A DNA stretch of 64,000 bases, from contig NZ_LMQU01000011.1 in NCBI RefSeq assembly GCF_001425445.1, positions 434,326-498,325 of the forward strand, given 5' to 3'. The notes beneath the pieces were generated by a model. That model had not been told where the DNA came from and did no database searches. It saw only the letters and a list, made by a program, of their open reading frames with translations. This document shows positions 687-47,790 of the stretch, piece by piece. Positions within the stretch are counted from its first letter, which is position 1. Each line of letters begins with the position of its first letter. Made by a program: the position numbers and the translations under genes. Source of the DNA: Devosia sp. Leaf420 (GTDB lineage Bacteria > Pseudomonadota > Alphaproteobacteria > Rhizobiales > Devosiaceae).

Positions 687-700
687 TCCCGAGGCCGATT

Positions 701-1995: not shown

Positions 1996-2028
1996 TTGGC
2001 TCTTGCACGGCCCACAGCCCCACTCTTT

Positions 2029-2098
2029 GTGACCCCGGCCTTGAGCCGGGGCCCATCCCCAAATCTCAAGATGGATCCCGGCTTAAGGCCGGGATGAC
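2029..2098. repeat. REP-like imperfect inverted repeat
   Basis: Two 28-bp arms (2029-2056 and 2071-2098) are inverted, nearly identical copies. Each contains its own short CCCGGCNTNAGNCCGGG-type palindrome. It lies between the convergent ends of the anti-sigma gene and the opp operon. The form is that of a dispersed REP/BIME element, and as RNA it would fold into a strong hairpin that could end the rightward transcript. Confidence 0.6.
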
Positions 2099-2120
2099 AG
2101 CCAGAGAGTGTTGAAAATCA

Positions 2121-2149
2121 AAAAAAATGGCGGACACCAGGTGCCCGCC
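2121..2149 (-). terminator. Rho-independent terminator of the opp operon
   Basis: Read on the minus strand just after the oppF stop, a nine-base-pair stem (TGGCGGGCA pairing with TGTCCGCCA, one G-U pair) is followed at once by eight T residues. This is a standard intrinsic terminator for the leftward oppABCDF transcript. Confidence 0.85.
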
Positions 2150-2171
2150 ACTCTCCAACTTTGAGAAACTC

Positions 2172-3190: not shown

Positions 3191-3191
<1 letters not shown>
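2172..3191 (-). CDS. oppF: Oligopeptide/dipeptide ABC transporter, ATP-binding subunit OppF/DppF
   Basis: A 339-residue ATPase that powers peptide uptake at the inner membrane as one of two nucleotide-binding subunits. It has Walker A ([12 protein letters not shown], near residue 53), the Q-loop FQDPLASLNPR, the signature LSGG variant [15 protein letters not shown], Walker B (LIVCDEPVSALD) and the H-loop SHNLSVV. The C-terminal oligopeptide-transporter extension has the GCTFRTRCRFAKPQC cysteine cluster of this subfamily. It is the last gene of oppABCDF and its ATG overlaps the oppD stop by one base (TAATG). Substrate range cannot be read from sequence. Confidence 0.93.
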
Positions 3192-4173
<982 letters not shown>

Positions 4174-16435: not shown

Positions 16436-16969
16436 ATGTCCGAGCTGTTCACGCCATTGACCGATGGCACCGGCCATCCCAGTCGCTGGCCCTCTGCCAT
16501 GCTGGTCTGCAGCCAGACCGAAGCGCGCCGCAATGGTGCCGAATGGGCCCCGACCCACATCATTTCGGTCTATGGCCCGGAAAACCGCTATCTCGGCCTG
16601 CCCGATTTCGACCAGACGCGCCAAATCCATGCGCGCTTCGAAGACGTGGTGGATCCCAGCGCCCCCGGCGCACCGACCCCGGCCCATATCGAAGAAATCC
16701 TAGGCTTCATCGCGACGCTCCCCAAAGACGCGCGCCTGATGATCCACTGCCTTCAGGGCCGCACCCGCGCCGCCGCCATTGCCCTCGGCATTTTGGCGCG
16801 CACGCTCCCCGCCGACAAAGCCGGCCAGGCGATTTTCCGCACCGTGCCCCAGGCTTCTCCCAATCCCCTGCTGGTAGCCTTGTTCGATCGCGCCCTCGGC
16901 CACGATGGCAAGTTGATCAAGGCCGGCCGCAAATTCCCCTCGACGGGCCTTCGCGCAGCGGTCGCCTAG
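16436..16969 (+). CDS. Tyrosine/dual-specificity phosphatase-like protein
   Basis: A 177-residue protein carrying the Cys-x5-Arg phosphatase loop: His104-Cys105 to Arg111 (IHCLQGRTR). This motif forms the phosphate cradle of protein tyrosine phosphatases. The preceding strand (KDARLMIHC) and following helix (AAAIALGILART) fit the fold. Related small cytoplasmic proteins occur widely in Hyphomicrobiales beside unrelated genes, and their substrates are not known. It starts four bases after the regulator stop, so it is probably the third gene of the fadD operon. The general-acid Asp could not be assigned. Confidence 0.7.
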   Translation: MSELFTPLTDGTGHPSRWPSAMLVCSQTEARRNGAEWAPTHIISVYGPENRYLGLPDFDQTRQIHARFEDVVDPSAPGAPTPAHIEEILGFIATLPKDARLMIHCLQGRTRAAAIALGILARTLPADKAGQAIFRTVPQASPNPLLVALFDRALGHDGKLIKAGRKFPSTGLRAAVA

Positions 16970-31744: not shown

Positions 31745-32437
31745 CTACCGCGCCAACCATTCGCGCATAGCGGTCGCCACCGCCTGTGGCGCTTCGAGCG
31801 TCGGGATGTGGCCGGCATTGGCAAAAATGGCGAGCTTGGCCTCTGGGATCATCGCCGCCATTTCCTCTGACAGTTCAGGCGGGATCAGCTTGTCCTCGGC
31901 CCCGACGCCGACCAAGGTCGGCACCGCAATTTGCCCGAGGAACGGCCGGGAATCGATCCGGGTCATGATCGCGTTTTGCTGGCGCAGATAGACTTCGGAC
32001 TCGACGCGCAGCGTCATCGCATGGACCGCTTCGGCGATGGCGCTATCGAGATGGATCGGCGCCAATAGGTTCGGCAGGCCCATGCGGGAGACGAGCGCCG
32101 ACTTGCCTTGGCGGACGAGTTCCATTTCGGTCCGGCGTGCGGTCTTGCGCTCTTCGCTATCGGGCCGCGCATTGGTATCGAGTAGGGCGAGATGGGTCAC
32201 GCGCTCGGGCGCCTGACGGATGATCTCGAGAACCACATAGCCGCCCATCGAAAGCCCCGCGAGGGCAAAGCGCGGCGGCGCCGCGGCAAGGATCCGCGCA
32301 GCCATTCCAGCAACGCTATCGTCGCGCGAAACGTCGGCCACCACCGGCGCCACGCGCTCGTCGAGACGCTCGATCACGGCATGCCAGAGATAGGCATCGC
32401 AGCGAAGGCCGGGGACGAGGACGAGCGGCTGGAACAT
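31745..32437 (-). CDS. Alpha/beta hydrolase
   Basis: A 230-residue cytoplasmic alpha/beta-hydrolase. The nucleophile is Ser63 in LAGLSMGGYV, the acid lies in GVGAEDKLIPP and the His in NAGHIPTLEAP. There is no signal peptide. Similar proteins are annotated as haloperoxidase-like or lactonase-like hydrolases, but no substrate can be read from the sequence. It is convergent with purK. Confidence 0.82.
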   Translation of the reverse strand: MFQPLVLVPGLRCDAYLWHAVIERLDERVAPVVADVSRDDSVAGMAARILAAAPPRFALAGLSMGGYVVLEIIRQAPERVTHLALLDTNARPDSEERKTARRTEMELVRQGKSALVSRMGLPNLLAPIHLDSAIAEAVHAMTLRVESEVYLRQQNAIMTRIDSRPFLGQIAVPTLVGVGAEDKLIPPELSEEMAAMIPEAKLAIFANAGHIPTLEAPQAVATAMREWLAR

Positions 32438-32980: not shown

Positions 32981-33150
32981 GGCGCCAGGATTTCGCACAG
33001 GCAGCGGGCGAGCCGACTTGTCCCCTGCCCTAACAAACCCCTTCACAAAAGCATAAAACCTTCAGCGTTAACCTTATTCCTTACCCCGTCGTTAAGACCT
33101 TCGGACGATTTTGGGCCTTGATGTTAAGGCTCATTTTCGACGAGGCCCGA

Positions 33151-33831
33151 ATGAAACGCTCAGCCATTGTGATGTCAGCCCTTCTGACGCTTACCGCGTC
33201 TGCGAGCGCAGCCGACCTGGGCTGGAACGGCGGCGGCGCCCCCGCTACGTCCACCATGTTTTCCTCCACGTCCGTTGCGGATTGGAACGGCTTTTATGCC
33301 GGCGTAAACGGCGGCTACCTCTGGGGCAATACTACCACCAGCCCCGCGATCAACAATACCAACAATAACAGCTCCGGCTGGACCGCCGGCGGCCAGCTCG
33401 GCTTCAACATGGATATGGGCGGCTTCGTCGTCGGCGCTGAAGCCGATCTGCAGTGGGCCAACCTTGCCTATAGCGAGCCACTCGGCAATGGCAGCACGTT
33501 CGAGAGCAAGCTCGATATGTTCGGCACCGCCCGCGCTCGCGCCGGTGGCACTTTCGGTCAGGTCATGCCCTTCGTGACCCTCGGCGCCGCCTTCGGTCGC
33601 GGCACGTCCCAGGTCCTCAATGGTGGCGTCACCACCTCCCAGAACGCCACCCATTTCGGCTGGACCGCCGGTGTCGGTATCGAGGCCAAGGCCACCGACA
33701 ATCTCTCGGTCAAGGCCGAGTACCTCTATGTCGATCTCGGCAACCAGACCTATAACGGTCTCCCCGGCGGCAGCCGCGAAATCGGCCAGCGCTTCAGCGT
33801 CATCCGCGCCGGTGTCAATTACGCGTTCTAA
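33151..33831 (+). CDS. Outer membrane beta-barrel protein (Omp25/Omp31-like)
   Basis: A 226-residue porin-like protein. The signal peptide covers residues 1-21 (ALLTLTASASA). The mature part starts with a short linker, then VADWNGFYAGVNGGYLWGN, the entry motif of the Omp25/Omp31 family, followed by alternating amphipathic strands and a C-terminal Phe (VRAGVNYAF-type end, here IRAGVNYAF) required for outer-membrane assembly. ATG 33151 follows GAGG. Eight strands are expected. Such proteins anchor the envelope and act as small porins. Confidence 0.9.
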   Translation: MKRSAIVMSALLTLTASASAADLGWNGGGAPATSTMFSSTSVADWNGFYAGVNGGYLWGNTTTSPAINNTNNNSSGWTAGGQLGFNMDMGGFVVGAEADLQWANLAYSEPLGNGSTFESKLDMFGTARARAGGTFGQVMPFVTLGAAFGRGTSQVLNGGVTTSQNATHFGWTAGVGIEAKATDNLSVKAEYLYVDLGNQTYNGLPGGSREIGQRFSVIRAGVNYAF

Positions 33832-33918: not shown

Positions 33919-34902
33919 GTGGAGAACGTTTCTCGATTGCCGAACATTCGACCTCCACAAAATATCTCCGCCGATGTGAGCCTGATCGCCCATTGCGACT
34001 GGAGCAAAACTCCATCCAAACGCTGGATGAGCCTCGCTTGCCGGACAGACAGCGGCTGGCAAATTACCGCACCCGAACCCGTCGGCAGCACCGAAACACT
34101 CTTCGAAAGACTGGCCAAACGAAAGCGCAAAAGCGGCGCGCTTCTTATAGGCGTCGATTTTTCGATAGGTTTACCAGCAGCTTACGCTAAAGCTGCCGGT
34201 ATAACGGACTTTCGAGAATTCTTGAATTCCATCGTAGAGGGCAAGTGGCCGACCTGGCTCGACGTCGCCACAACGCCTCAAGAAATCGGAATTCACCGCC
34301 CCTTCTATCCCGCACGCCCCGGCAACGCGAAGCGAGCCCATCTCCTCGCCGCGCTAGGCCTAACGGCCTGGGATGACCTCCTCCGCCTCTGCGAACGCGC
34401 CAGCAACGAACGACCAGCCGCCGCAAGCCTCTTCTGGACCATGGGCGGCAACCAAGTTGGCAAAGCCGCCATCTCCGGCTGGCAGGAGCTCATCATTCCC
34501 AACCTCGATCGCATCGCACTATGGCCCTTCGACGGGCCTTTGCACGAGCTTGTCCGGACCAATGACATTGTCATCGCTGAAACTTATCCCGGCGATATCT
34601 ATAGCCAAATCGGCTTTCCCAAACGCGGCTGGAGCAAGCGAAAGCAAGGCGATCGCGTCAGATTTGCCGATAGTTTCGCCCAATGGTTCATGGAAAAACC
34701 CCACGTGAAGCCAGGCGCAATACTGCCATTGATCGCGACGGGCTTCGGCGAAGACCCGCATGCGGAAGACCGCTTCGATTCTCTTGTCGGTCTAATTGGC
34801 ATAATCGATGTGGTCGACGGAGGGCGCTATGACGGCGCGCCGGATACCCCGCAAATCAGCGAGATCGAGGGCTGGATGCTTGGTCATCGGCGAAGCGGAT
34901 AG
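33919..34902 (+). CDS. DUF429-like predicted RNase H-fold protein
   Basis: A 327-residue cytoplasmic protein of uncertain function. The N-terminal HCDWSKTPSKRWMS strand, LLIGVDFSIGLP with a conserved Asp, IAETYPGDIYSQIG, and a final DRFDSLVGLIGIIDV fit the pattern of DUF429 proteins, which are predicted to have an RNase H-like nuclease fold. The family assignment is from motif resemblance only. The start is uncertain: GTG 33919 gives the longest form, while GTG 33976 lies just before the first conserved strand. It is convergent with the giant autotransporter gene. Confidence 0.6.
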   Translation: MENVSRLPNIRPPQNISADVSLIAHCDWSKTPSKRWMSLACRTDSGWQITAPEPVGSTETLFERLAKRKRKSGALLIGVDFSIGLPAAYAKAAGITDFREFLNSIVEGKWPTWLDVATTPQEIGIHRPFYPARPGNAKRAHLLAALGLTAWDDLLRLCERASNERPAAASLFWTMGGNQVGKAAISGWQELIIPNLDRIALWPFDGPLHELVRTNDIVIAETYPGDIYSQIGFPKRGWSKRKQGDRVRFADSFAQWFMEKPHVKPGAILPLIATGFGEDPHAEDRFDSLVGLIGIIDVVDGGRYDGAPDTPQISEIEGWMLGHRRSG

Positions 34903-34914
34903 TTCAGAAATCGC

Positions 34915-37900
34915 CTAGAATTTCGCGCCTATGCCACCCCTGACTGTCACGGAACGGAACCCCGTCGCGTCAAGATCTGCACCAAATTCGCCGTTGAGCG
35001 TGAGCCCATTCGGACTCGAATAGCCAAAGCCCACCGTGCTGCGACCATAGAGGCGGCTGTCGACACTGAGATCGCCGAGAACGCTCCCGGACAGGCCAAG
35101 TTCCACCTCTGCCTTTGGCGTCAGAACGTGCCCGCCTTCCAAATCGATGCCGTATTCAAAGGCGCTCCCCAGGCCCACCTTGAATGCCGTCTGTCGCTCG
35201 ATTTCGACCAGAACGGCATCCCCGGTTTCGTTGCGCACGAAATAGTCGCCACCATCTTCGCTTGAAAGCGTCATGAGCACGCTCGGCCGGATGGTGAGGG
35301 CGTCGTGCTCCCATAAACCGCTGAGATCGAGATTGGCAAGGAACCGCTCCGTGCCGAACGAGCCAGCGAAATATTGGCCAAACATTTCCGCAACCGCGTC
35401 GTTCTGCGATTGGCCATAGAGGAGACTGCCGTCGAGAGAGAGGTGCTCGGAGAGGGCCACTGAACCATAGATGCCTGCGAGATAACCGGTGCCGCTCACT
35501 GACCCCTTGCTGGAATTGTCGTGCATCCAATCCCCCTGCAACACTGCGCCGAGCAGCGCAGTATCGCCGAGCAGGTAGTCAACACCAATGGCGAGGGTCG
35601 AGAAGTCGCCCCAGTGCGTATCGACACCGGCTTGCGCATGCAGCGTCATCTGCGCGTCGATCCAGATATTGACCGGAAGGGGCTCCAGCGCGACCGAAGT
35701 TGCCAGATTTTCTGCAGCCTTTGCCGCGCCCCAACTCATGACGTCAGCTAGGCTCGAGGTGAAGCCGAGGATCTGGCTTGTGCCATCGGCCCGCGCAATG
35801 ACTGTGCCGGGGCGCCGGCCGGGCGCAATGCGGCGTCGATCAAAAATATCAGGGAGACGAAGAGCTGTTGCCACGAGCTTTTGCCGCGTCGTCATGAACT
35901 CTTCGGTCATCGTGGCGAACTGTTCGGCGACTGCCGTCGCCTGCAAGGTGATCGACGTTCCCGAGACGATTGCGCCGATCCCATCGACCACCGCTGTGCC
36001 AGGCAGATCAACGCGGCCGGCCTGCATGTCGGCTTCGGTGATCGTATATGACCCCGTACAGACCATGGTCGCAAAGGCTGGCAAACTATCCGACGGACAC
36101 GCCACCGCCATAGCCGCGGAACTAACGCCGAGGCCCGTCAGATCGACACCACCCGTCGCAACGAGCGTATAGATGACCTCGATCCGCTGACCGAGCGCGA
36201 CGAAAGCCTCGGGACGTGTGCTCATCGAGAAACTGACGCCATCGGCGCCGATCACGCGCTGGCTCAACGCCGGTGACTGGCTCGCGGCATGGATCGCCGT
36301 GCCGCCATAATAGGCGATGATCGAATGCGTGCCGGACGCAAAGCCGGGCACGGTATATTGCGCCAGTCCCCCGCCAAGCGTGGCGCGTCCCAAGAGGATG
36401 TTGCCGCTATAAAACACCACGGACCCCGACGGCGAACCAGTTGGCGTTTGGACGGCAGCCGTAAAGGTCACGGGCTGGCCCACGCCCACTGCGGCGGCCG
36501 AGGTCGAGAGAGCGGTGCTTGTGGCTTCAAGGCCCGACATCATGACGATGCGGCGCCTGAGCGGCGCAGCGGCGTTTGATTGATAGACGGCGTCTCCCGA
36601 ATAGATGACCGTCATCTCCCCTTCCGTCGCGTCCGGAAAGACCATGCTGGCCGTTGCGTGGTCACCCACGAGGTTCGCTGAAACCTGATCGCTCCAAGTG
36701 CTGCTGGCGAAGCGGAACAGGACTGATCCCGTGGGCATGCCACTGCCCGAGAGCGAGAAAACGCGCGCCGACAGGGTGGCAAGAGCGCCGGGAACGGGAC
36801 GGTTGGGCGAAATGGTGAAGCTTACCGTCGTATCGCCCATGACCTGATGGTTGATCTGGGCGCTGGCCGCATTGAAATAGGTGTCCCCGTCATAACTTAC
36901 CAAAAGCGTATGGACGCCTGGGCCAAAAAGGGTTTCGGTAACGGAAAACTGCGCGGTCGGCCCCGCAAGCGTGATGACCTGATCGGCAAAGAGTCCGTCG
37001 GCGTGACGAAGTGTCAGTGTTCCGCTGGGCGTGCGACCGGTGAGAGCGACAGGTGTCAACGTAACGTCGATGACGAAATCGGTGCCACTATTGGTGGCAT
37101 CGACCGCAAGATCGACATCGTCGCGGACGACGGGTTGGTTGAGGACCGCCGACTGGCTTGCAGCATCGATCAGATTGAGTGGACCAAGATATCGCGCCGT
37201 GAACGCTGTATCGGCGGCGAGAGGCGGTGTGACAAATGTCGCTGAGCTCGCGCCGTTGGTCACCGATGTTCCGATCACACTGCCATCGGCTAGGAACTCT
37301 ATCGTTGCGGAGGATGGCAGGCCGCTGGCGGGTGCCTGTCGCTCGACTTCGGCCGTCAATGTGACCGTCTCGCCAACAAGTGTTCTGGGCGCTGACGCTG
37401 AAAGGTTGAGCTTGGTCGGCGCACTCACCGGAACGACCGGCGAGGTGTCTGAACTCGCATTGAAGTTCCCCTCGCCAAGGTATCGCGCCTCGATGTTCCG
37501 CGTATCGAGATCGAAAAATGCATAATCAAGGCTCGCAACACCTATGGCATCAACTGCGCTCCTGCCGAGCACAGTGCCTGACGGCTGCGCCACGAACTCG
37601 ACGTCGCCAGTCGGGATCAACTCAGACAGCGCGGTTATTTCAGCCCTCATCGTGATCATTTGGCTGATGACCGGCGACGCAGTTGAGAGCGAAAGATCGG
37701 TAAACGTGTCTTCCGATACCGTCGAGACGGGCATGACACGATGCGCCATGCGGGGCGATGCACTGGCGCGGAACACGTGATGAAGCGGGTAATTCACCCA
37801 TATGTCATGAGTACCGACGGGCAGCTCATCGGTCGAGAATGTTGCTTCTCCGCCCACTAGCGTCTGCGCACCGAGTCTCGTGCTTCCGGCAAAGAATTCC

Positions 37901-40900
37901 ACATCGCCAGTGGCGTCTAATGCATGGGTCGGCACGAGATCGACGGTAGCAACGAATGTGGACGTCGCGCCTTCCATTGCCGAGGCCGGACCCGTGACGG
38001 TGACCACCGTGTCTGCACTGACGGTTATGTTCACCTCTGAGGATGCGCCAAGGTCGAGCGCGGGGTCGTCTGGCTCAAATTCCGCGCGTAGAATATGGAT
38101 CCCAGGATCCAATGGGCTAATCAGAGTGCGCGTCCCCCCTACGGCCGGACCGGAGTCGATGAGCGCATTATCTAGGTAGAATTTAAGAGTGCCGGCACTC
38201 ACCGGACCGCTCGAAGGCGCAAGTCGCCCGACGCTTGCGACAACGACAAGCCTATCGTCATGCCGGCTGATCGAGAGATTGCCGCTGATGCTGGCTTCCG
38301 TGGCTGCTGCTGTGGCCGACACGGTAAGCTGTGCGGAACTGGAGCCCAGGAAGCCCGCGGTACCGAGATATTCGGCCTCCACCGTTTGCGAAGCAAGTCC
38401 GATGGGCCACTCGATTTCCGCGCGGCCCTGAGCGTCAAGAAGCTCGCTGTCAATCGTCGCGCCGTTGGATTTAAAGACCAAGGAGCCACCCGGAATACCG
38501 CCTGACGAAAGCACCTCTGCGCGCAAAACCACGCGCTGCCCCACAACGGGGCTTGAGGACGATGGCGCAAGGTTGACGGTCGTCAGGCTCGGCGCATTGG
38601 CGCCTGCGGGCGCAATTGTCAAAGTGTAGGTTTTAGAACCGCTATTGCCCAGATTATCTGTGGCCGTGATCGTGAAAGAGAATTGGCCGTCGGCCGAAGG
38701 CGTACCGAAAAGCACGCCGCTGGTATTGTCGATCGACAGATTGGGAGGAAGGTCAGGGGCCGCGTCAATCTGAAACGTGAACGGGCCAGTCCCATTGGTC
38801 GGCCGGACCAGCTCGGAATAGGGCACGCCATTTTCGGCATCGGGAAGGCTAGCGGGGAGCGCGAGAGGAATGAACGCCTCAGAAACTGTTAACGTCTGGC
38901 TCTGGCTAACGGAAAAACCATCAGCATCGGTCGCCTGGATAGTGAAGGTGAACGTACCATCGGTTGTCGGCGTGCTCGTGATCGCGCCGGATGCATCGAT
39001 CGAGAGGCCGGGCGGCGCATTGATCAACCTGTAGGCGAAGCTCGAGCCAGATAACGTACTCGTTGCGTCCACATCGGCATTATAGGGCACACCCACACGA
39101 GCCGTCAGCGGAACCGTACCGCTCAAGCTCAATCCTGGGGGAGCCACGTTCAGGTCAAAGGTATGAGATTTGAAATAGTCGCCGTCCTTTACCGTGATTT
39201 CGAAACGGAAAGGTCCCGCAGCCGTGGGCGTTCCGCTGAGCATACCGGTCGTTGGCGCGAGGCTGACACCCGGCGGCAAGGCACCAGCGGTGACGCTATA
39301 GCTGACAATCGCGACAGGCGTGCCTGATGCCGCAACGCTGCGCGTATCGAGTTGCTTGAAAGGCCAATCCGCCAAAGCGCCGGAGAAGCTGAGGGCGCCA
39401 CTTTCATTGCTGAGTACCGTCAAATCAAAGAGCGCCGAGCCGCTAAAGCCATTTTCGTCGGTCGCGGTTATTTCAAACGAGAAATTGCCTTGGGCAGTCG
39501 CAGAGCCAGAGAGCGTCCCGTCTTCCGCAAGAGCAAGGCCCGGCGGAAGCGTTCCTGCGCTCAGCGAGAACTTGAGCACTCCAGCACCATTGCCTGACGC
39601 GGCGAACTGATAAGGTGCGAACGGCGATGCCAGTATCGTGTCGGTGAGGCTGCCACCAGCCAGCGTCATCGTTGGCGCGTCGACCTGCAGCGCATAGGTC
39701 GCGGTGCCGTTAAAACCATTGCTGTCGCGGATGGGAACAACGATGGAGAAGGCACCCGCTTCGGTCGGCGCGCCGGACAATGTCCCTGTTGCCGGATCAA
39801 AGGACAGACCTGTCGGCAGCCCCGTGGCTGCGCCAAAAGTGTAGATGCCAGAACCACCGCTGACGGCGATCTGAGCAGAATAGGACGTCCCCGCGGTACC
39901 AGTTGCCAGCGCACTTGCCGAGGTGAAGGTCGGGGCCACGACGGAGAGCGAATAGCTTTGGCTATTCTCAAGACCGGTCAATGTATTTGTCGCGGTCACC
40001 GTAAACGCGTAGGTTCCGGCAGTTGTCAGTGTCCCTGAAATGTCGCCCGTGATCGGGTCGAGGCTGAGACCAACAGGCAGGTCCGAGCTCACATAGGTGA
40101 AACTGCCGCCCCCATTGGTCACTCCTGCCGTGCCAGACCCAGGCTCGCCCGCAATCCAAGTTGGCAGGGTCGGATTCAATATGGCAGTGCCCAGATGGGC
40201 GCTGATGATGACGGTATAGGGATGCTCGACAGTGAAGCCATTGGCATCTCGGGCCTCGATGTCGAACGTATATGTGCCGACGAGCGATGGCGCACCGGAC
40301 AACGTGCCCTGAACTGTTCCCGTGGCACCAAGCGTCAAACCGGGCGGTAGTGTCCCTCCCTTAAGGACCACGCTGTAAGGCGCGACGCCCCCCGCTATCG
40401 AAAACGTCGCGCTATAGGGGCGAGTGGTTTCGTGGGCAGTATCACTGAGGACGCCAAGCGAAAGCACCGGCGGCGCGACAACCAGGGTAATTGCGGCAGT
40501 GCCGATGAAGCCATTTGCATCTTTGGCCTCGACATCGAAGCTCACAGAGCCAGCAGTGTCGGGTGTGCCCGTAAGGTCACCGGCTGCTGTAAGGAATAGC
40601 CACGCTGGTTTGTCGGGGCTGGTGAAGGTGTAAGTGCCCTGCCCGCCCGTCGCCGTCAGATTTGCCGAGAAAGCAGCGCCAAATGCGGCAGAGGTCCCTG
40701 AGATCGAGACCACGACGGATGGCGGAACCACGACCAGAGCAAAGCCTTGGCTCGATACGTCACCGGAGCCGGTATCGGTCGCCGCGACGATAAGGGCATG
40801 ACTGCCGACGTCGGTCGTGGTTCCAGAGACCAAGCCGGTCTGCGGATCGAATTGGAGGCCTTGAGGCAACGTGCCTGAAACAATCTGATAGGTGTAGCTT

Positions 40901-43900
40901 CCAGAGCCACCCGTGGCATTGAAGGCATGGGAATATGCCGCGCCTGCGACCACCGCAGGCGGCGGCGTCATCGTGAGCACCGAGGCAGCGGCGATTGCAA
41001 AGGTGTAGCGCTGGGTACCAGCACGCGGCACGGGCAAGGAGCTGTCGGTGGCAGTGATTGTGAAGTCAGCAGTGCCCGATTGGCTCGGTATGCCAGACAA
41101 CAAGCCCGTCGTGGTATCGAGCTGCAGGTCCAATGGCAGGCTGCCCGCTGAGACGCTGTAGGTATAGGGACCCGTCGCGCCAACCGCAGCGATCGACTGA
41201 AGATAGTGTTGCCCCTCCCGTGCAGGCGGCAGGCTAGCCGGCAGGGTGACCACGGGCACTACGGTGGTGACGAACGAAGCCGATGCCTGCCCGGAAAAAC
41301 CGTTGGCGTCTGTGACTGTGAATGTCACCGGATAGGTCCCTGCGGCTGAGGGAATGCCGGTCACGGCGCCTGTATCTGCATCGAGTACCAGCCCGGGCGG
41401 AAGTGGATCGGCACCGATCGCATAGGTGTAGGGTTCAGCGCCTCCCGAGGCAGTGATTGAACCACCGGGATAGGCGATGCCCACTTCGCCTGCGGGCATA
41501 GTGGCCGACGCCGCGATCACTGGCGCGGTGAAGGTCACCGGATAGGTTCTGCTGCCCACAACACCATTGGTGTCGGTCGCGGTCAGGACAAGGTTGAACG
41601 TTCCGGTTTGGCGCGTGGTCCCTGCGACAATGCCAGTCGTTGCATCCACACTAATCCCCGATGGTGCCCCCGATAGCGCGAACAAATAGGCGCCAGCGCC
41701 GCCCGTAACGGTAGGCGCTACACTCTGATAAGGAGTTCCAGCGACGCCGCTTGGTGGAAGACTTGACGTGATGAGCACCGCGACGGGAACGACGATGGTG
41801 ATCGAATAACTGCCTGTGGTGACCGGCTGGTCGTTTGCATCGACCACATCGACGTCAAAGGTGAACGACCCCGCGGACAAGGGGCGCCCGGTAATTTGCC
41901 CCGTTGCCGCGTCCATCTGCAGACCCGGTGGAAACCCGGTGCCGTGCGTGACAAAATAGGGACCTGTACCACCGACGGCAGTGACCGAACCGAAATAGTC
42001 CGCCCCGACTTCGCCGGGCGGAACATGCGAGACAAGCGTCACACTGATTGGCGCAGGGTCCACCACGAGCGCAGAGGACGCGCTGGCCGGCAAGATATTC
42101 GGTGTTCCGCTGAAATCGGCAGCGACGGTGAAGCTGCCAGCGCTTGGGAACGCTGTTGAGTAAGAAGCTTTGCCGGACGCGTTGAGTTGGACCGTTGCCG
42201 GAGACATGCCGGGAGCGCTGAAGGTGACATCGCTTGGCGGAACCAGGCCAGGCGCAGCGACCGTGAGTTCAAACACCACCGGCTGTCCCGCAGTGGCGGG
42301 GCTCGGGCTGACAACAAGGGCAACTTTTGGTGTCGCTCGTTCGATGGTGACGCCAATGCGCTCGTCAAAACTTGCCCCATAGTCTCGACCTGCGACATAG
42401 CGGGCGATGACCACATATTGTCCCGCAGACAATGCCGGTAAGTCGAAGTCCGCAGAGCCACCCACAAGGGCCGAGGTGCCGACAACAGTCCCATTGACCA
42501 AAAATTCGACGATGCCCGACGGTGTTCCCGCCCCCGCAGTCAGGGCCGTAACGACGGCTGTGGCAGTGATCGGATCGCCAAAGCGCAAAGGTGCGGCGGG
42601 CAAGGATAAAGCCGTGCTGGTGGCAGCCGCGACAACGACCTGCCCGCCAGCAAGCGCGTCGCGCGCAGGACCGTATTCATGCGTACCGGCATAAACCGCT
42701 TCCACAGTGTGATTGCCGCCTGACACAAATGCGTAATCGAGCGTGGCGGAGCCATTCACGAGGGGTTTTCTGATTGGCGCCGAAGTGTCTCCATCTATGA
42801 TGAAATCGACTGTGCCGGTTGGGGTAAAAGCACCCGCCGTCAGATCTGCGCGGAACGTGGCCAGCTCACCTACATGAAGAAGCGCAGGGGGCCCGAAAAT
42901 TCTAAGCGTCGTCGTTTTGTGCGTAATGACGACAGGAGTCGCCAGCGTCGCGCTGGAGGTGTCATGATTGTTCTGCGTGGCGTAGGAGGCGCTGACGGCG
43001 TGCGAACCGACTGTCAAAGCGCTCAATGTCAGTCGCGCTTTGCCGCCAACCAAGGAGCGGGCGCCATAAGAGGTCCCATCGACCATAAAGACTACGTTGC
43101 CCGACGGCGTTCCCACGCCGGTTACCTCAGCCACCAACTCGACGGCAGTCCCCAATTCCGCAGTCGAAGGCGTCGCGGACAAGGCCATGAGAGTGCTCGC
43201 CGGGGTGACCGTCTGCCCGCCATTTATAGCGCCCGTCGCAGGCAGGATGTGACTATCGCCCGAATAGCTGGCCGAGATGGTGTGATTGCCGACATCGAGG
43301 CCAGGAAGGCTCAGCACCGCCACGCCATTGGCAAATGAACCAGCAGATCTTGGCGAACCATCCACCGTGAAAGTTATTGTGCCGGTTGGCACAAGAGAGC
43401 CCGTATTGAGGCGCGCCTCGATCGTCGGACTGGTCCCGTAGACTGATACGGGGGAAGAGCTGACGACCGTTAGGGCGGATGAAGCCTGTTGGATAGTCAA
43501 ACCACCGGCCAATGGCGCGGTCGCACCTTGGAAATCGGACGTCTGCGCATAGATGGCAGTGACGAGATAAAATCCTGACTCCAGCGTCGGAACGGTCAGG
43601 TCCGCCCTGCCATTCGTGATCGGAGCCTGGTACCTCGTCCCATCGATATCGAAGACGATGTCACCAGAAAGCGGCCCGCCCGCTGAGGAAATATCGGCAG
43701 AAAGGGTCGCGGACTGCCCATAGGCGACCGCATTGGCACTCGCTGATACGCTTAGCGAAACCAGCGCCCTATCGACGTGCAAGTCACCGGCGAGAATGCC
43801 CGTGGATTGTTCGTGATCGCCGTCGCCAGAATATTCAACCCTGACAACATGAGTGCCGACGGAAGACGGCGTTGCGGAAACACTCGCCATACCTGCTGTA

Positions 43901-46881
43901 AGCAACACATCGTCCGCGACCAGCGTATTGTCGATGTAGACATCGACCGTGCCTGTCGGCGTTGCGGCTGTGGAGTTGACCTTGACCGAAAAGGTTACCG
44001 TTCCGCCTAGCGTAATAGTAGGCGCCGAGGTGGTGACCTCAGTCGACGTCAAAGCCTTGTTGACCTGATGCTGCACACTGGCCACTGGGCTCGCGCTAAA
44101 GCTGGTCGTTGCAGCATAGCTTGCCGTAATCTGCCGCTGCCCGACGGCAAGAGTTGTCGTCTTGGCCAAGGCAACACCTGCGTGAAGCTCCGCCGAACCA
44201 AGAGACTGCCCGTCGGCCATGAAGGTCACATCGCCCGTTGGCACACCACCTAGGGATGTCACCTCGGCACGAAGCGTGACTTCATCTTTGAACCGGCTGG
44301 GTTCAGGTAGAACGGTGAGGTTCAGAGCAGTATCGGCAGGGCGCACCTGGTAGCCACTGGCGAGCGTATCGGTGCTCTGGATAAAGCCTGCATCCCCGCT
44401 ATATACGGCAGTTACGGTATACGTGTTCACTGCAAGGCTCGGCAGCGAGAGGACTGCCGTGCCATTGACGAGGTTTTGCGCCGGCTGCTGAGCCCCATTG
44501 AGGGAGAAGGTGACGCTCCCCGTCAGGGCGCCGACGCCAGGCGCGAGGGCTTCGACATGAGCGGTGAACACCGCAGCGGCGCCAAATGCCCCGCTCGTAG
44601 CATTGCTTGAAATCGTCGTGGCCGTGGCAGCTCTGCCAACAGTGTGCCCACCCGGAAGCAAGCCAGTTGCCGAAAGAGCGTTGGCACTCCCGCTATAGGC
44701 TACCGATACGGTGTGATTGCCCACTGCCAGCGAGGAACGCGTGAGTGTCGCCTCACCATTGATGAGGGTCACCGCGGGCAAAACCTGCTGATTGTCGATC
44801 GTGAATATTATCGACCCCGTTGCCGGGCCGCCCGGGGCGGAGGCAAGGGCCGTAAAGTTCACTGCCTGCCCGGTTACGGTTGGCTCGGGCGTCGCGGTTA
44901 ACAAAACCGAGGATGTCGCTTTACTGACGGTGTGCGCGACAGCGCCTGACACGCTGGCCGAAAAGCTGTCGGACACCTGATAGGCGGCGGTGATACTGCG
45001 AGCGCCAATCGCAAGGCCCGACAGCGATACCTTGGCCTCTCCACCAACGAGCGCGGCGTCTGGCCCCGGAACGCCATCAATACTGAAGACGACCCTACCA
45101 CCCGGAGTACCTGCGGCTGAAGTAACGCGAGCGACCGCCGTCGGCGTATCGCCAAACTGGCTATTTGCCGAACCCAAGGTGAGCGTGGTCGTGGTCGAGG
45201 CCGGCGAAACGACCTGTCCGCCTGAGAGAACCCCATCCCCGGACTTAAAATTTGTAGAGCCTCCATAGTGAGCCTCCACAAGATGTGTGCCACCGGAAAG
45301 ATTAAGCGCTGTGAAGTTCGCAACACCGCCAACGACAGGCACCGGCGTCTGCGCAACACCGTCGATCTTGAAGGTAACCGTCCCAGTCGGCGTGCCGCCA
45401 GCGGAGGTGACCGTTGCGCCGAAGGTTGCCTGCTGACCATAGACCACGGCACCCGGACCCGTGACTTGGACAGTGGTGGCCGCTTGATCGACCTGCTGGG
45501 AAGCCGACGTATTGGAGCCGGTGAAATTGCTCGTGGGATGATATGTCGCCAACACGGCATGTGTCCCGACACCAAGCGGCGGCATGGCGATACTGGCTTT
45601 GCCGCTGACAAGACTGACCGGCGCATAGGCAACGCCATCGACGGTGAAAACCACGGTGCCCACCGGCGTGATCTGGGAGGCCTCGACAGTGGCGGTAATT
45701 GTGCCGGCCTGGCCAAAAGTGCTCGGATTTGGCGAAAGACTGAGCGTAGTCGTCGTCGCTGCAGGCGTGACGGACCGGTAAGCTGGGCTCGAAACACTGG
45801 CAGCATGACCCGATGAGCCCGAATATTTGGCAATGATAGACCGCGTGCCGGCGGCAAGTGCTGTGGTCGTGAAGGTCGCCGTGCCCGCCTGCAAAGCGAC
45901 CGCCGGCTGATCGACGCCATCGATGGAAAACACCACCGTGCCGGTGGGCGTCGACACGCTGGGCGCAGTCGCACTGACTTGAGCCGTCAAAGTAACAGAC
46001 TGGCCATAAGCGCTTGGGGTTGGATTTAAAGCGACGGTCGTAGTGGTCGCCGCTAGTGCGACCCCGTGCCCTCCGGCCAGCGTGCCGCTTGCGCCACCAA
46101 AGTTCGCATTCCCGAGATAGTTCGCGGTCACCGCATATGTGCCGACCGGCAAATCCGAACGCGATAGGGTCGCAACGCCGTTGGTCAAGGCAACCGGCGA
46201 CTGCTGCACCCCGCCGATCGAGAAAACCACATCACCCGTGGGTGTTCCACCAATCGAACTCGCGCTTGCCTGAAACTGAACCGGCTGACCAAAAAACGAC
46301 TGACTTGGGCCCGAAACGGCCAGTGTTGTCGGCGCGGGCGCCGGATTGCAGGTGAGCGAGACAGTAACGCGGTTCGACTGGCTTAGGGCGGCCGTCGCAT
46401 CGACATGGGCCGCTTGCAGCAGGGCGGAGCCGGTCGCCGCAATTGTTCCATTGATGACATAGCTGGTATTGGTGGCATTGGTAACGGTCGCCCCAAGAAT
46501 CGTTGCGGGCAAGATGTTGGTATATAGGATTTGCAATACTGCGCCGGCTTTGGCTGGATTGCTCGTATAGGCAAAGCGAATTTCGTCGCCGGCATAAAAA
46601 ACTTGCGTCGTAAGCAACAGTCCCGCGGTGGATGGCGGACCCGAATAGTTCATCACACCTGAATTGACGTAAGTGCAACCGGGCGACGCTGCGACGGCGA
46701 CGCCTGTCAGCGCGGAGAAGCACAGCAATGCCGGAATGCAATGGCGAAGAGGCTGGGTGAGAAGACGGCCGCAGCAGAAAGCAAGGACTGTCGCCAGCCA
46801 CTGAACAACACCGATAACGAAGCCATTACGCCAGAGGCGCGTAAAGATCGGTACCACCGAAAACCCAGACAGAAAGAGCAC
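34915..46881 (-). CDS. Giant Ig-repeat autotransporter (putative surface adhesin)
   Basis: A single uninterrupted frame of 3,988 codons. After an unusually long leader of about 66 residues (hydrophobic segment at 21-36, then a normal signal peptide ending AVA), a cap domain (about 67-190) is bracketed by Cys residues. By eye there follow about 15 Big_3-type Ig-like domains (TPTGxVxFxxDG...GxHxVxAxYxG), 13 putative Ig domains of the He_PIG type (PPGLxLDxxTGxxxGTPxxxGxxxFxVxxxDxxG), eight more Big_3-type domains, a DUF11-like domain with a Cys pair, a helical linker and a barrel of about 240 residues ending in Phe. The last is an autotransporter (type V) translocator, so the Ig rod should be displayed on the cell surface. 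Adhesion or biofilm roles are inferred. The GTG start has no clear ribosome binding site. The mature chain shows only four Cys. Confidence 0.85.
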   Translation of the reverse strand: MLFLSGFSVVPIFTRLWRNGFVIGVVQWLATVLAFCCGRLLTQPLRHCIPALLCFSALTGVAVAASPGCTYVNSGVMNYSGPPSTAGLLLTTQVFYAGDEIRFAYTSNPAKAGAVLQILYTNILPATILGATVTNATNTSYVINGTIAATGSALLQAAHVDATAALSQSNRVTVSLTCNPAPAPTTLAVSGPSQSFFGQPVQFQASASSIGGTPTGDVVFSIGGVQQSPVALTNGVATLSRSDLPVGTYAVTANYLGNANFGGASGTLAGGHGVALAATTTTVALNPTPSAYGQSVTLTAQVSATAPSVSTPTGTVVFSIDGVDQPAVALQAGTATFTTTALAAGTRSIIAKYSGSSGHAASVSSPAYRSVTPAATTTTLSLSPNPSTFGQAGTITATVEASQITPVGTVVFTVDGVAYAPVSLVSGKASIAMPPLGVGTHAVLATYHPTSNFTGSNTSASQQVDQAATTVQVTGPGAVVYGQQATFGATVTSAGGTPTGTVTFKIDGVAQTPVPVVGGVANFTALNLSGGTHLVEAHYGGSTNFKSGDGVLSGGQVVSPASTTTTLTLGSANSQFGDTPTAVARVTSAAGTPGGRVVFSIDGVPGPDAALVGGEAKVSLSGLAIGARSITAAYQVSDSFSASVSGAVAHTVSKATSSVLLTATPEPTVTGQAVNFTALASAPGGPATGSIIFTIDNQQVLPAVTLINGEATLTRSSLAVGNHTVSVAYSGSANALSATGLLPGGHTVGRAATATTISSNATSGAFGAAAVFTAHVEALAPGVGALTGSVTFSLNGAQQPAQNLVNGTAVLSLPSLAVNTYTVTAVYSGDAGFIQSTDTLASGYQVRPADTALNLTVLPEPSRFKDEVTLRAEVTSLGGVPTGDVTFMADGQSLGSAELHAGVALAKTTTLAVGQRQITASYAATTSFSASPVASVQHQVNKALTSTEVTTSAPTITLGGTVTFSVKVNSTAATPTGTVDVYIDNTLVADDVLLTAGMASVSATPSSVGTHVVRVEYSGDGDHEQSTGILAGDLHVDRALVSLSVSASANAVAYGQSATLSADISSAGGPLSGDIVFDIDGTRYQAPITNGRADLTVPTLESGFYLVTAIYAQTSDFQGATAPLAGGLTIQQASSALTVVSSSPVSVYGTSPTIEARLNTGSLVPTGTITFTVDGSPRSAGSFANGVAVLSLPGLDVGNHTISASYSGDSHILPATGAINGGQTVTPASTLMALSATPSTAELGTAVELVAEVTGVGTPSGNVVFMVDGTSYGARSLVGGKARLTLSALTVGSHAVSASYATQNNHDTSSATLATPVVITHKTTTLRIFGPPALLHVGELATFRADLTAGAFTPTGTVDFIIDGDTSAPIRKPLVNGSATLDYAFVSGGNHTVEAVYAGTHEYGPARDALAGGQVVVAAATSTALSLPAAPLRFGDPITATAVVTALTAGAGTPSGIVEFLVNGTVVGTSALVGGSADFDLPALSAGQYVVIARYVAGRDYGASFDERIGVTIERATPKVALVVSPSPATAGQPVVFELTVAAPGLVPPSDVTFSAPGMSPATVQLNASGKASYSTAFPSAGSFTVAADFSGTPNILPASASSALVVDPAPISVTLVSHVPPGEVGADYFGSVTAVGGTGPYFVTHGTGFPPGLQMDAATGQITGRPLSAGSFTFDVDVVDANDQPVTTGSYSITIVVPVAVLITSSLPPSGVAGTPYQSVAPTVTGGAGAYLFALSGAPSGISVDATTGIVAGTTRQTGTFNLVLTATDTNGVVGSRTYPVTFTAPVIAASATMPAGEVGIAYPGGSITASGGAEPYTYAIGADPLPPGLVLDADTGAVTGIPSAAGTYPVTFTVTDANGFSGQASASFVTTVVPVVTLPASLPPAREGQHYLQSIAAVGATGPYTYSVSAGSLPLDLQLDTTTGLLSGIPSQSGTADFTITATDSSLPVPRAGTQRYTFAIAAASVLTMTPPPAVVAGAAYSHAFNATGGSGSYTYQIVSGTLPQGLQFDPQTGLVSGTTTDVGSHALIVAATDTGSGDVSSQGFALVVVPPSVVVSISGTSAAFGAAFSANLTATGGQGTYTFTSPDKPAWLFLTAAGDLTGTPDTAGSVSFDVEAKDANGFIGTAAITLVVAPPVLSLGVLSDTAHETTRPYSATFSIAGGVAPYSVVLKGGTLPPGLTLGATGTVQGTLSGAPSLVGTYTFDIEARDANGFTVEHPYTVIISAHLGTAILNPTLPTWIAGEPGSGTAGVTNGGGSFTYVSSDLPVGLSLDPITGDISGTLTTAGTYAFTVTATNTLTGLENSQSYSLSVVAPTFTSASALATGTAGTSYSAQIAVSGGSGIYTFGAATGLPTGLSFDPATGTLSGAPTEAGAFSIVVPIRDSNGFNGTATYALQVDAPTMTLAGGSLTDTILASPFAPYQFAASGNGAGVLKFSLSAGTLPPGLALAEDGTLSGSATAQGNFSFEITATDENGFSGSALFDLTVLSNESGALSFSGALADWPFKQLDTRSVAASGTPVAIVSYSVTAGALPPGVSLAPTTGMLSGTPTAAGPFRFEITVKDGDYFKSHTFDLNVAPPGLSLSGTVPLTARVGVPYNADVDATSTLSGSSFAYRLINAPPGLSIDASGAITSTPTTDGTFTFTIQATDADGFSVSQSQTLTVSEAFIPLALPASLPDAENGVPYSELVRPTNGTGPFTFQIDAAPDLPPNLSIDNTSGVLFGTPSADGQFSFTITATDNLGNSGSKTYTLTIAPAGANAPSLTTVNLAPSSSSPVVGQRVVLRAEVLSSGGIPGGSLVFKSNGATIDSELLDAQGRAEIEWPIGLASQTVEAEYLGTAGFLGSSSAQLTVSATAAATEASISGNLSISRHDDRLVVVASVGRLAPSSGPVSAGTLKFYLDNALIDSGPAVGGTRTLISPLDPGIHILRAEFEPDDPALDLGASSEVNITVSADTVVTVTGPASAMEGATSTFVATVDLVPTHALDATGDVEFFAGSTRLGAQTLVGGEATFSTDELPVGTHDIWVNYPLHHVFRASASPRMAHRVMPVSTVSEDTFTDLSLSTASPVISQMITMRAEITALSELIPTGDVEFVAQPSGTVLGRSAVDAIGVASLDYAFFDLDTRNIEARYLGEGNFNASSDTSPVVPVSAPTKLNLSASAPRTLVGETVTLTAEVERQAPASGLPSSATIEFLADGSVIGTSVTNGASSATFVTPPLAADTAFTARYLGPLNLIDAASQSAVLNQPVVRDDVDLAVDATNSGTDFVIDVTLTPVALTGRTPSGTLTLRHADGLFADQVITLAGPTAQFSVTETLFGPGVHTLLVSYDGDTYFNAASAQINHQVMGDTTVSFTISPNRPVPGALATLSARVFSLSGSGMPTGSVLFRFASSTWSDQVSANLVGDHATASMVFPDATEGEMTVIYSGDAVYQSNAAAPLRRRIVMMSGLEATSTALSTSAAAVGVGQPVTFTAAVQTPTGSPSGSVVFYSGNILLGRATLGGGLAQYTVPGFASGTHSIIAYYGGTAIHAASQSPALSQRVIGADGVSFSMSTRPEAFVALGQRIEVIYTLVATGGVDLTGLGVSSAAMAVACPSDSLPAFATMVCTGSYTITEADMQAGRVDLPGTAVVDGIGAIVSGTSITLQATAVAEQFATMTEEFMTTRQKLVATALRLPDIFDRRRIAPGRRPGTVIARADGTSQILGFTSSLADVMSWGAAKAAENLATSVALEPLPVNIWIDAQMTLHAQAGVDTHWGDFSTLAIGVDYLLGDTALLGAVLQGDWMHDNSSKGSVSGTGYLAGIYGSVALSEHLSLDGSLLYGQSQNDAVAEMFGQYFAGSFGTERFLANLDLSGLWEHDALTIRPSVLMTLSSEDGGDYFVRNETGDAVLVEIERQTAFKVGLGSAFEYGIDLEGGHVLTPKAEVELGLSGSVLGDLSVDSRLYGRSTVGFGYSSPNGLTLNGEFGADLDATGFRSVTVRGGIGAKF
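34918..35640 (-). other. Autotransporter beta-barrel domain of the giant protein
   Basis: Residues about 3750-3987 carry alternating strands such as WGDFSTLAIGVDYLLG, GTGYLAGIYGSVALSEHLSLDG and SVTVRGGIGAKF, with the C-terminal Phe recognised by the Bam complex. The pattern matches the type Va translocator. Boundaries are approximate. Confidence 0.8.
36215..38599 (-). repeat. Second Ig-like (Big_3-type) block, about 8 domains
   Basis: Eight diverged units of about 95-100 residues, recognisable by GxVxF...G...L...G...AxYxG spacing, precede the DUF11-like domain (IEVIYTLVATGGVDLTG). Units are far more diverged than in the first block. Boundaries are by eye. Confidence 0.65.
38600..42024 (-). 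repeat. Putative-Ig (He_PIG-type) block, about 13 domains
   Basis: Thirteen units of about 85-90 residues, each with GG(x)GPYxYxxxxGxLPPGLxLDxxTGxxxGTPxxxGxxxFxVxAxDxxGxxG-like features. They sit between the two Big_3-type blocks. Boundaries and count are by eye. Confidence 0.75.
42025..46345 (-). repeat. First Ig-like (Big_3-type) block, about 15 domains
   Basis: Fifteen units of about 93 residues with a regular pattern: FGQxVxFxAxV, TPTGxVxFxIDG, LxNGxAxxxxxxLxxGxHxVxAxYxGxxxxxxS and a closing ATTTxL. Count and edges are by eye. Confidence 0.75.
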
Positions 46882-47175: not shown

Positions 47176-47790
47176 CTAGATCTGGTTTTTACGAAGGGCC
47201 GTAGCGACCGCATGAACGCGGTTGAACGTACCAAGCTTCGCCCCCGCATTGGCAATATGCGTATCCACAGTCCGGCTGGTGATGCCGAGCATCGAAGCAA
47301 CGGTATCGCTGGTATTGCCGAAAGAGATCAGTCGCAGAATTTCCCGTTCGCGCTCGGTGATGGCGTATTTGCCGCGTGGCTGCGGCTCTTCCTCACGCGG
47401 CTCTTCTTCTTGATAGTCCTGGATCGGGCAAACAGTGCCGTAAAATCCTTCGAACTGATCATTCTCGCCGAATTTTGGTAGGCCCACGGCCCAGACGCTC
47501 GAATAATCGCCATCCGCCCGCGCCAGCCTGAAGGCCGCGCCATAAGCAGTCTGCGTATCATGAGCGTGGAGGAAGCTGCGCCGGACCTTTCCGGCATCGT
47601 CTGGATGAACAAGGCTCAGCCAGGAAAGGCCGATCCCTTGATCAGCGTCAGCACCGGTGAAATGAAACCATTCCGGGCTGAGGTAAAAGCATTCACCATT
47701 CAAATCAGTCGCCCAAGCGATCAAATTGGTGGTCTCAGTAACGGCCCGAAACCTTTGACGCTCAGCCGTCCAATCGACAGTTTTTTTCAT
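47176..47790 (-). CDS. PAS-domain LuxR-family transcriptional regulator
   Basis: A 204-residue regulator. Residues about 13-125 form a PAS domain (NLIAWATDLNGECFYLSPEWFHFTG, then LSLVHPDDAGKV and a PAC-like WAVGLPKFGENDQFEGFYGTV). After an acidic Glu/Pro linker (EEEPREEEPQ), residues about 140-202 form a GerE/LuxR helix-turn-helix (ITEREREILRLISFGNTSDTVASMLGITSRTVDTHI). It has no autoinducer-binding domain, so the PAS domain may sense redox, light or a small ligand. It lies directly upstream of, and in line with, the giant autotransporter, and its control of that gene is inferred. Confidence 0.85.
   Translation of the reverse strand: MKKTVDWTAERQRFRAVTETTNLIAWATDLNGECFYLSPEWFHFTGADADQGIGLSWLSLVHPDDAGKVRRSFLHAHDTQTAYGAAFRLARADGDYSSVWAVGLPKFGENDQFEGFYGTVCPIQDYQEEEPREEEPQPRGKYAITEREREILRLISFGNTSDTVASMLGITSRTVDTHIANAGAKLGTFNRVHAVATALRKNQI

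What the first reader, a model, noticed from the sequence alone, without database searches (positions are those of the whole stretch)
34915..46881. Giant sandwich-architecture Ig-repeat autotransporter
One uninterrupted 3,988-codon frame combines about 15 Big_3-type Ig domains, about 13 He_PIG-type domains, then about eight more Big_3-type domains, a DUF11-like domain and an autotransporter barrel. The change from one Ig family to another and back, with a type V barrel, is unusual. Units are strongly diverged, so the array is old rather than recently amplified. Cys residues in the mature part appear only as two pairs, at the N-terminal cap and near the C-terminus, so the rod is held without disulfides. 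The protein is probably a long surface fibre for adhesion or cell-cell contact.
Basis: partly seen in the sequence, partly recalled or inferred. Interest (0 to 1): 0.75.

Follow-up and report, generated by a model that had tools for sequence, protein, structure and literature searches.

The report
Giant Ig-rod type Va autotransporter
A bacterium encodes a 3,988-residue surface protein that looks like a very long rod of 36 antibody-like modules hung from an outer-membrane barrel, and three related species keep the same order and nearly the same number of modules although most of the letters have changed, which suggests that the make-up of the rod may matter.

Summary
The frame (minus strand, 46881..34915, 3,988 aa) carries 15 Big_3_5, 13 He_PIG, then 8 Big_3_5 units, a Cys-pair module near DUF7507 (borderline) and a type Va barrel: PF03797 at 47.7-49.8 bits when C-terminal pieces are searched alone, and an AlphaFold2 model with 12 strands whose first Foldseek matches are NalP, BrkA and EspP. 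New here: the sandwich is conserved. Three other species (75 genomes of the genus searched, own included) have the same array, 15-13-7. Blocks stay in register by permutation in all six pairs, and unit by unit for 35 of 35 in the closest pair (only 13-15 of 36 for the window's protein), although the window's protein is about 37% identical to them while PurK is 79-87%. One species has a paralogue in which a 10-domain block over the B/P junction is present four times (40 of 40 units in period). The N-terminal cap, with an invariant Cys pair in 10 aligned caps, also heads short autotransporters of the order. Most likely this is a monomeric type Va autotransporter presenting its cap on a long rod, for adhesion or cell-cell contact; function and partner are untested. 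New variant of a known kind.

The parts
46687..46881 (-). Leader, residues 1-65: N-terminal extension, then a hydrophobic stretch ending ..GVAVA|ASPGC; start codon (GTG 46881) uncertain
   Evidence: translation, upstream DNA; relatives also have long leaders before the cap. No signal-peptide predictor was on hand; the cleavage site is inference
46327..46686 (-). N-terminal cap, residues 66-185, Cys69 and Cys178
   Evidence: Cys pair invariant in 10 of 10 aligned caps (one doubtful match, L096, had been left out); in 4 of 75 genus genomes, five genes, all giants, and in short proteins of the order; no Pfam family at E 0.001
42037..46326 (-). 15 Big_3_5 Ig units, residues 186-1615
   Evidence: unit 1 predicted as an Ig fold
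38587..42036 (-). 13 He_PIG units, residues 1616-2765
   Evidence: 13 of 13 over the Pfam cut-off
36247..38586 (-). 8 Big_3_5 units, residues 2766-3545, more diverged
   Evidence: 7 of 8 by Pfam, two of these under the cut-off
35941..36246 (-). Membrane-proximal Cys-pair module (Cys3595, Cys3608), DUF7507-like beta domain, residues 3546-3647
   Evidence: 25.3-27.0 bits, cut-off 27; Cys spacing of 13 in all five giants; beta strands in the model
35674..35940 (-). Helix (3648-3673) and linker to the barrel, residues 3648-3736
   Evidence: model helix 114-139; alignments to EspP that include this part begin at model 110-119, EspP 996-1005
34915..35673 (-). C-terminal 12-stranded type Va beta-barrel, residues 3737-3988, and stop
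   Evidence: PF03797 49.8 bits; AlphaFold2 mean pLDDT 88.4, 12 strands; first Foldseek matches NalP, BrkA, EspP; EspP 8bnz_P Z 20.3, rmsd 4.1, 279 aligned, tied with the non-autotransporter barrel CymA at 19.5
47176..47790 (-). Upstream gene: PAS-LuxR (GerE) protein, candidate regulator of the giant gene
   Evidence: Pfam PAS_3 and GerE; GerE genes also lie directly upstream, divergent, of the giants in L024, L066 and L067

Best explanation
It is a monomeric type Va (classical) autotransporter whose passenger, instead of the usual beta-helix, is a linear rod of 36 Ig-like domains with a small cap, probably disulfide-closed, at its far end. Shown by sequence and model: cap, 15 Big_3_5, 13 He_PIG, 8 Big_3_5, Cys-pair module, helix, 12-stranded barrel; and an array in register across four species. 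Inferred: Sec export; the barrel inserted by BAM; the passenger leaves C-end first, Cys-pair module in front; each Ig unit folds on exit and so draws out the next (as reviewed for intimin); the cap emerges last and is held roughly 100-150 nm from the cell (about 3-4 nm per Ig domain, recalled). The cap, which in short relatives sits near the barrel, is the likeliest binding part and the rod a spacer. The LuxR-type genes beside the giants suggest regulated display. Likely role: adhesion to a surface, polymer or other cells. The confidence given is for barrel, export and rod with distal cap; that adhesion is the role I put near 0.5, and that rod length is under selection near 0.3.
For: Domains by Pfam and own profiles. 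Barrel by PF03797 and by model. Conserved architecture in four species: 15B-13P-8B (window), 15B-13P-7B (three others; in G069 the last three units score only 3.6-14 bits). Register: same-number best match for 35 of 35 units (L024 against L066) and 29 of 35 (L024 against L067); summed same-number score of the B and P blocks reached by 0 of 20,000 permutations in 11 of 12 block comparisons and by 1 in the twelfth, C-terminal block by 2-62 of 20,000 (six pairs). Identity about 37% against PurK 79-87%. Short relatives: cap and barrel (L092), cap, three Big_3_5 and barrel (L094). Ig fold of unit 1 (CelAly B1 domain, Z 11.5, rmsd 2.0, 91 aligned). Passages on one-by-one folding of Ig domains in intimin (PMC8151025; PMC6555100).
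Against: No experiment, no expression data. The signal peptide was judged by eye. The two cap cysteines lie 109 residues apart, while the review calls closely spaced cysteines usual for type V proteins (passage), so export of a closed cap is a weak point. For the window's protein only 15, 13 and 15 of 36 units find the same-number unit as best match in the three others. Only 4 of 75 genomes of the genus carry it, and the window's copy is about equally far from the other three although PurK puts G069 nearest: paralogy, horizontal gain or fast change are all open. No fold could be named for the cap (weak model).
Confidence: 0.7

Rival explanations
1. Neutral inertia: the array keeps its number only because its units have diverged too far to recombine; length is not under selection, and the protein is a generic sticky or protective surface coat.
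For: The best partner of each unit within the window's protein is at most 52% identical, so unequal crossing-over should be rare. The C-terminal block does differ by one unit (8 against 7).
Against: The paralogue in G029 did change length, by three extra copies of a 10-domain block, so the family can grow; the 15+13 units show no gain or loss across four species at 37-58% identity. Neither excludes inertia.
Confidence: 0.4
2. Stalled or two-ended anchor: the cap folds in the periplasm, closed by its disulfide, and cannot pass the barrel, so the rod is a loop fixed at both ends or the cap stays periplasmic.
For: The cap Cys pair is invariant in 10 of 10 aligned caps and 104-115 residues apart in the five giants; a periplasmic disulfide-bonded end that anchors the fibre is described for some TpsA proteins (passage).
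Against: Disulfides in passengers such as IcsA and intimin, and up to 18 cysteines in Pmp proteins, are described for other type V proteins (passage); a small cap, linker and barrel relative exists (L092), for which a permanent stall would make little sense.
Confidence: 0.07
3. Released or delivered factor: the rod sheds or delivers the cap as an active factor.
For: The cap is a distinct conserved module found with quite different middles.
Against: No Pfam family matches the cap and Pfam names no enzyme or toxin domain in the whole protein.
Confidence: 0.08

Closest known systems
Type Va (classical) autotransporters (PF03797; NalP, BrkA, EspP, Hbp)
   Same: C-terminal 12-stranded barrel with a preceding helix; N-terminal passenger; PF03797 over cut-off
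   Different: Passenger is a string of Ig domains; a review calls the beta-helix usual and EstA an exception (PMC6555100, passages)
Ig-type autotransporters of the Hyphomicrobiales, e.g. Ensifer adhaerens WP_223730971.1, 'putative Ig domain-containing protein', 1,437 aa by its coordinates
   Same: Related barrel end (33% over 62% of the 454-aa query) and an Ig-type annotation
   Different: About a third of the length; its domains were not mapped here
Mixed He_PIG / Big_3_5 autotransporter of the same genus (L034, 1,219 aa)
   Same: Both Ig families and PF03797 in one protein
   Different: 2 He_PIG then 5 Big_3_5; no B-P-B sandwich; its genome (G018) has no match to the cap profile
Inverse autotransporters, type Ve (intimin, invasin, YeeJ)
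   Same: Long rods of Ig domains (PMC6555100 and PMC8151025, passages)
   Different: Barrel N-terminal there, C-terminal here; opposite direction of export
BigE (10,429 aa; PMC3419190, passages and section 7)
   Same: Giant type Va autotransporter enlarged by repeated passenger segments
   Different: BrkA-related passenger with an eight-fold segment, EstA-type barrel, as the paper says; not compared by sequence here
Type I-secreted Ig adhesins (SiiE and the giant protein of an ant-gut Rhizobiales; PMC5156944, passages)
   Same: Giant rod of BIg domains, proposed for attachment
   Different: Type I secretion, no autotransporter barrel of their own (recalled)

Membership tests
Type Va autotransporter | C-terminal autotransporter beta-domain (PF03797) | tested here: met
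   47.7 and 49.8 bits on pieces, cut-off 26; 48.4 bits; not reported on the whole protein
Type Va autotransporter | 12-stranded single-chain barrel preceded by a helix | tested here: met
   12 strands, model residues 203-451, helices 114-139 and 177-191; NalP, BrkA, EspP first by Foldseek
Type Va autotransporter | passenger on the N-terminal side of the barrel | tested here: met
   36 Ig units at 197-3531, barrel at 3737-3988. The passenger is not the beta-helix that is usual, though not required, in the class
Type Va autotransporter | N-terminal Sec signal | tested here: inconclusive
   hydrophobic stretch before ..AVA|ASPGC seen; no predictor on hand
Type Va autotransporter | passenger exported with its own barrel and BAM | not testable with these tools
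   needs an experiment
Type Ve inverse autotransporter | N-terminal barrel, C-terminal passenger | tested here: not met
   barrel at residues 3737-3988 of 3988
Pfam Big_3_5 (PF16640) | score over cut-off 35.5 | tested here: met
   20 of 22 places over the cut-off; whole protein 749.6 bits; a 23rd unit by own profile only
Pfam He_PIG (PF05345) | score over cut-off 24 | tested here: met
   13 of 13
Pfam DUF7507 (DUF11-like) | score over cut-off 27 | tested here: inconclusive
   25.3 and 27.0
Type I-secreted giant Ig adhesin (SiiE-like) | no outer-membrane barrel in the same chain | tested here: not met
   own barrel present; partner ABC genes were not searched for

The most novel reading that the evidence does not exclude
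The protein is a genetically fixed molecular ruler: an Ig rod of three mechanically distinct segments whose unit numbers (15, 13, 7-8) are held by selection, so that the N-terminal cap acts at a set distance from the cell; a paralogue re-sets that distance in quanta of ten domains.
Probability: 0.3. Interest if true: 0.7.

Novelty: new variant of a known kind. Interest (0 to 1): 0.5.

Why it matters
Tandem-repeat adhesins often change unit number readily (recalled). Here 28 units in two blocks keep number and order across four species while 42-63% of the aligned residues differ, and a paralogue shows how length can change: by copying a 10-domain block over the boundary of two Ig families. That makes the question whether bacteria select the length of a surface fibre testable, by counting units in more strains and by adding or removing blocks in a laboratory strain. 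It also suggests that the type Va route can carry a passenger of 36 separately folding domains.

Tried and rejected
Pfam on the whole protein does not report PF03797; C-terminal pieces do, so the miss is taken as a search effect. NCBIfam gave nothing at E 0.01. PDB by sequence gave nothing for the last 361 aa. The genome-contig scan with the C-terminal 661 aa gave one weak locus, a Lysobacterales MAG, not followed beyond an ORF scan. Tandem Repeats Finder found no DNA array in L025, but its longest period is 500, so a 10-domain block could not appear. The cap fold: the model is weak there (blocks of pLDDT 46-86) and the fold searches were filled by the Ig unit; the cap is untested, not 'new'. 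One of the six cap matches in the order (L096) lies in a frame that reads like a dihydroxyacetone kinase (recalled look); I took it as chance and left it out of the cap alignment. The four class genomes with cap-type matches (G468, G579, G682, G767) and G883 of the family were not examined further.

Synteny: of 17 flanking ORFs tested, the LuxR HTH recurs upstream of three other giants at about 50%; the frame at 25736-27358 has hits of 23-33% in five loci, L067, L026 and L074 among them, taken as family-level; the hydrolase at 31745-32437 has one 39% hit in L066. LuxR adjacency is suggestive only: the genomes hold 11-20 GerE places each, the relatives' genes may be one inherited event, the window's regulator is of another type (PAS, same strand), and the G029 paralogue has no listed GerE place nearer than about 58 kb.

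The order sample (397 genomes) lists no frame over 2,822 aa besides the window's own, but the list was cut ('more matches are not listed'), at most four candidates a genome were scored, and the 2,822-aa frame (G361) was not examined. The G029 paralogue lies in two overlapping frames (L025 16679-16700); real frameshift or assembly error was not decided. In G069 the strict profile count gave 4 C-terminal units and the looser one 7.

Papers: PMC6555100, PMC5156944, PMC8111173, PMC8151025, PMC9289746 passages only; PMC3419190 passages and section 7. Nine paper searches: no listed title or abstract start names a He_PIG/Big_3_5 type Va protein. The library holds open-licence PMC papers only, and of the listed papers only those named above were opened.

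Full report
WHAT IS THERE. The window carries one open frame of 3,988 codons on the minus strand, 46881 to 34915. G+C of the gene (0.605) is that of the window (0.606). Pfam finds Big_3_5 (22 stretches, E 2.4e-231) and He_PIG (13 stretches, E 4.3e-94). Profiles started from one unit of each kind and iterated on the protein give a clean row of 36 units: Big_3_5 x15 (197-1595), He_PIG x13 (1625-2749), Big_3_5 x8 (2780-3531), each at 40 bits or more, with no competing assignment above 0.5 bits. All 22 Big_3_5 and 13 He_PIG places found in this genome at E 0.001 lie in this gene.

ENDS. The last 245 residues alone score 49.8 bits against Autotransporter PF03797 (cut-off 26), although the scan of the full protein does not report it. 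An AlphaFold2 model of residues 3535-3988 on a 17-row alignment (A2) has mean pLDDT 88.4 and pTM 0.80, with 12 long strands (model 203-451) after helices at 114-139 and 177-191. Foldseek's first matches are NalP, BrkA, EspP, AaaA and Hbp; other barrels and one chance row follow. VIA-align gives EspP 8bnz_P Z 20.3, rmsd 4.1 over 279 residues, tied with the non-autotransporter barrel CymA (19.5), so the structure says 'barrel of this size' and the sequence profile says 'autotransporter'. Before the barrel lies a beta module with Cys3595 and Cys3608, near the DUF7507 cut-off; the spacing of 13 is the same in all five giants. At the other end a cap of about 120 residues holds Cys69 and Cys178, both invariant in 10 of 10 aligned caps. 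The rod between has no cysteine.

RELATIVES IN THE GENUS. A search with the C-terminal 428 residues found matches in 26 of 75 genomes of the genus, own included. Most matched frames are 0.8-1.9 thousand residues long, a few shorter. Two were mapped with Pfam: L027 has 8 TIG, 2 fn3 and 2 He_PIG stretches (its barrel by own profile; Pfam did not report PF03797 there at E 0.001), and L034 has 2 He_PIG, 5 Big_3_5 and PF03797. Matched frames over 3,000 aa occur in four genomes only. Three of them, G029 (L024, 3,906 aa), G094 (L066, 3,895) and G069 (L067, 3,774), have 15 Big_3_5, 13 He_PIG and 7 Big_3_5 units; in G069 the last three score weakly (3.6-14 bits) and were missed at the stricter setting. 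The cap profile found exactly these four genomes, with five genes, among 75, one more short frame (465 aa, E 2.4e-4) in the family sample (5 of 136 genomes in all), and six other genomes of 397 in the order sample, one of which I hold to be a chance match (L096). With the cap plus unit-1 profile five other genomes of 385 in the class sample match, one of them (G684) in the Ig part only.

REGISTER. Unit by unit, the best match of each unit of L024 is the unit of the same number in L066 for 35 of 35 units and in L067 for 29 of 35. For the window's protein the figure is only 15, 13 and 15 of 36 against L024, L066 and L067. Because single units at this distance are noisy, I tested whole blocks: the summed same-number score was reached by 0 of 20,000 permutations for the B and P blocks of all six pairs, except 1 of 20,000 in one B block, and by 2-62 of 20,000 for the C-terminal block; shifts of one to three units always score lower on average. 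The array was thus essentially complete before these genes parted. The extra unit of the window's C-terminal block falls in a gap of the pairwise alignment near residues 3365-3466. Whole-protein identities are 37-38% between the window and the three others and 47-58% among them, while PurK, a housekeeping gene in the window, is 79-87% identical to theirs. PurK puts G069 nearest to the window's genome; the giant does not. So the gene is fast-changing, an old paralogue or horizontally moved; its patchy presence (4 of 75) fits any of these.

A PARALOGUE THAT GREW. G029 has a second giant, in two overlapping frames of 3,496 and 2,988 aa (L025, L026): 63 units, counted frame by frame, in the order 15B 6P 4B 6P 4B 6P 4B 13P 5B (loose setting). 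Units 12-51 have their best within-protein match at a multiple of ten units in 40 of 40 cases (hence also of five), against 1 of 23 for the other units; the four copies are 55-59% identical. Read simply, a 4B-6P block over the junction of a 15B-13P array was copied three more times. The first 15 units are in register with L024. The four single-frame giants show no comparable period; their commonest offset, three units in three of them and one in the fourth, covers 7-10 of 35-36 units.

MINIMAL FORMS. In the order, the cap heads short proteins: L092 (548 aa: cap, linker, PF03797 at 94.2 bits), L094 (cap, three Big_3_5; the stretch I hold stops inside the barrel, which the C-terminal profile finds at 73.1 bits in the same genome and contig), and L093, L095, L097 with helical, NPDPG-repeat or short linkers and a barrel by own profile. 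The giants thus look like an extreme lengthening of a cap-spacer-barrel family. This is the main reason to see the cap as the working end and the Ig rod as spacer; it is inference.

HOW IT PROBABLY WORKS. Shown: the parts and their conservation. Inferred from the family: Sec export, chaperoned periplasmic transit, barrel assembly by BAM, passenger export C-end first, one-by-one folding of Ig domains outside (reviewed for intimin; passages in PMC8151025 and PMC6555100), cap last. The cap's cysteines are 109 residues apart, more than the review calls usual, so export with a closed disulfide is a weak point. Pfam names no catalytic or toxin domain in the protein.

NEIGHBOURS. Directly upstream, same strand, is a PAS-LuxR protein. 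In L024 and L067 two, and in L066 one, LuxR-type HTH genes lie divergently upstream of the giant. With 11-20 GerE places per genome that is more than a random neighbour would give, but the three relatives may count as one event and the test is after the fact.

VERDICT. BigE (10,429 aa; PMC3419190) is longer, and an Ig-annotated relative of the barrel end is already on record in this order. New variant of a known kind.

Noticed in passing
L025 about 16679-16700 and L026 3679-12645 (G029): Second giant of G029: 63 Ig units across two overlapping frames, with a 10-domain super-module in four copies; frameshift or assembly error unresolved.
   Followed up: partly
L068 14009-16688 (G085): An Ig-type autotransporter whose barrel end is split over three short frames (genome 84% complete): broken gene or sequencing error.
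   Followed up: no
L069 4042-5025 (G094): A barrel-only frame of 327 aa, with one TGA inside the match to the C-terminal query: possible remnant autotransporter.
   Followed up: no
window 33118-33831 +: OMP_b-brl outer-membrane protein near the 3' end of the giant gene; a 28% relative lies beside an 847-aa autotransporter in G006 (L029 8202-8783).
   Followed up: partly
window 33919-34902 +: 327-aa frame without Pfam match at E 0.001, convergent with the giant gene, 12 bases between the two stops.
   Followed up: partly
L037 (G000:C11:189310-190074): The genome's other PF03797 match (161.8 bits, 1,055-aa frame); no Big_3_5 or He_PIG place lies there.
   Followed up: no
G361:C4:323668-324981: 2,822-aa frame with a strong match to the C-terminal alignment in another genus of the order; architecture not mapped.
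   Followed up: no
G095, several contigs: Eight places related to the C-terminal region in one genome of the genus, a marked expansion of such proteins.
   Followed up: no
units of G000, L024, L067: The commonest offset of a unit to its best partner within the protein is three units (10 of 36, 8 of 35, 7 of 35): perhaps the trace of an old three-domain amplification.
   Followed up: no
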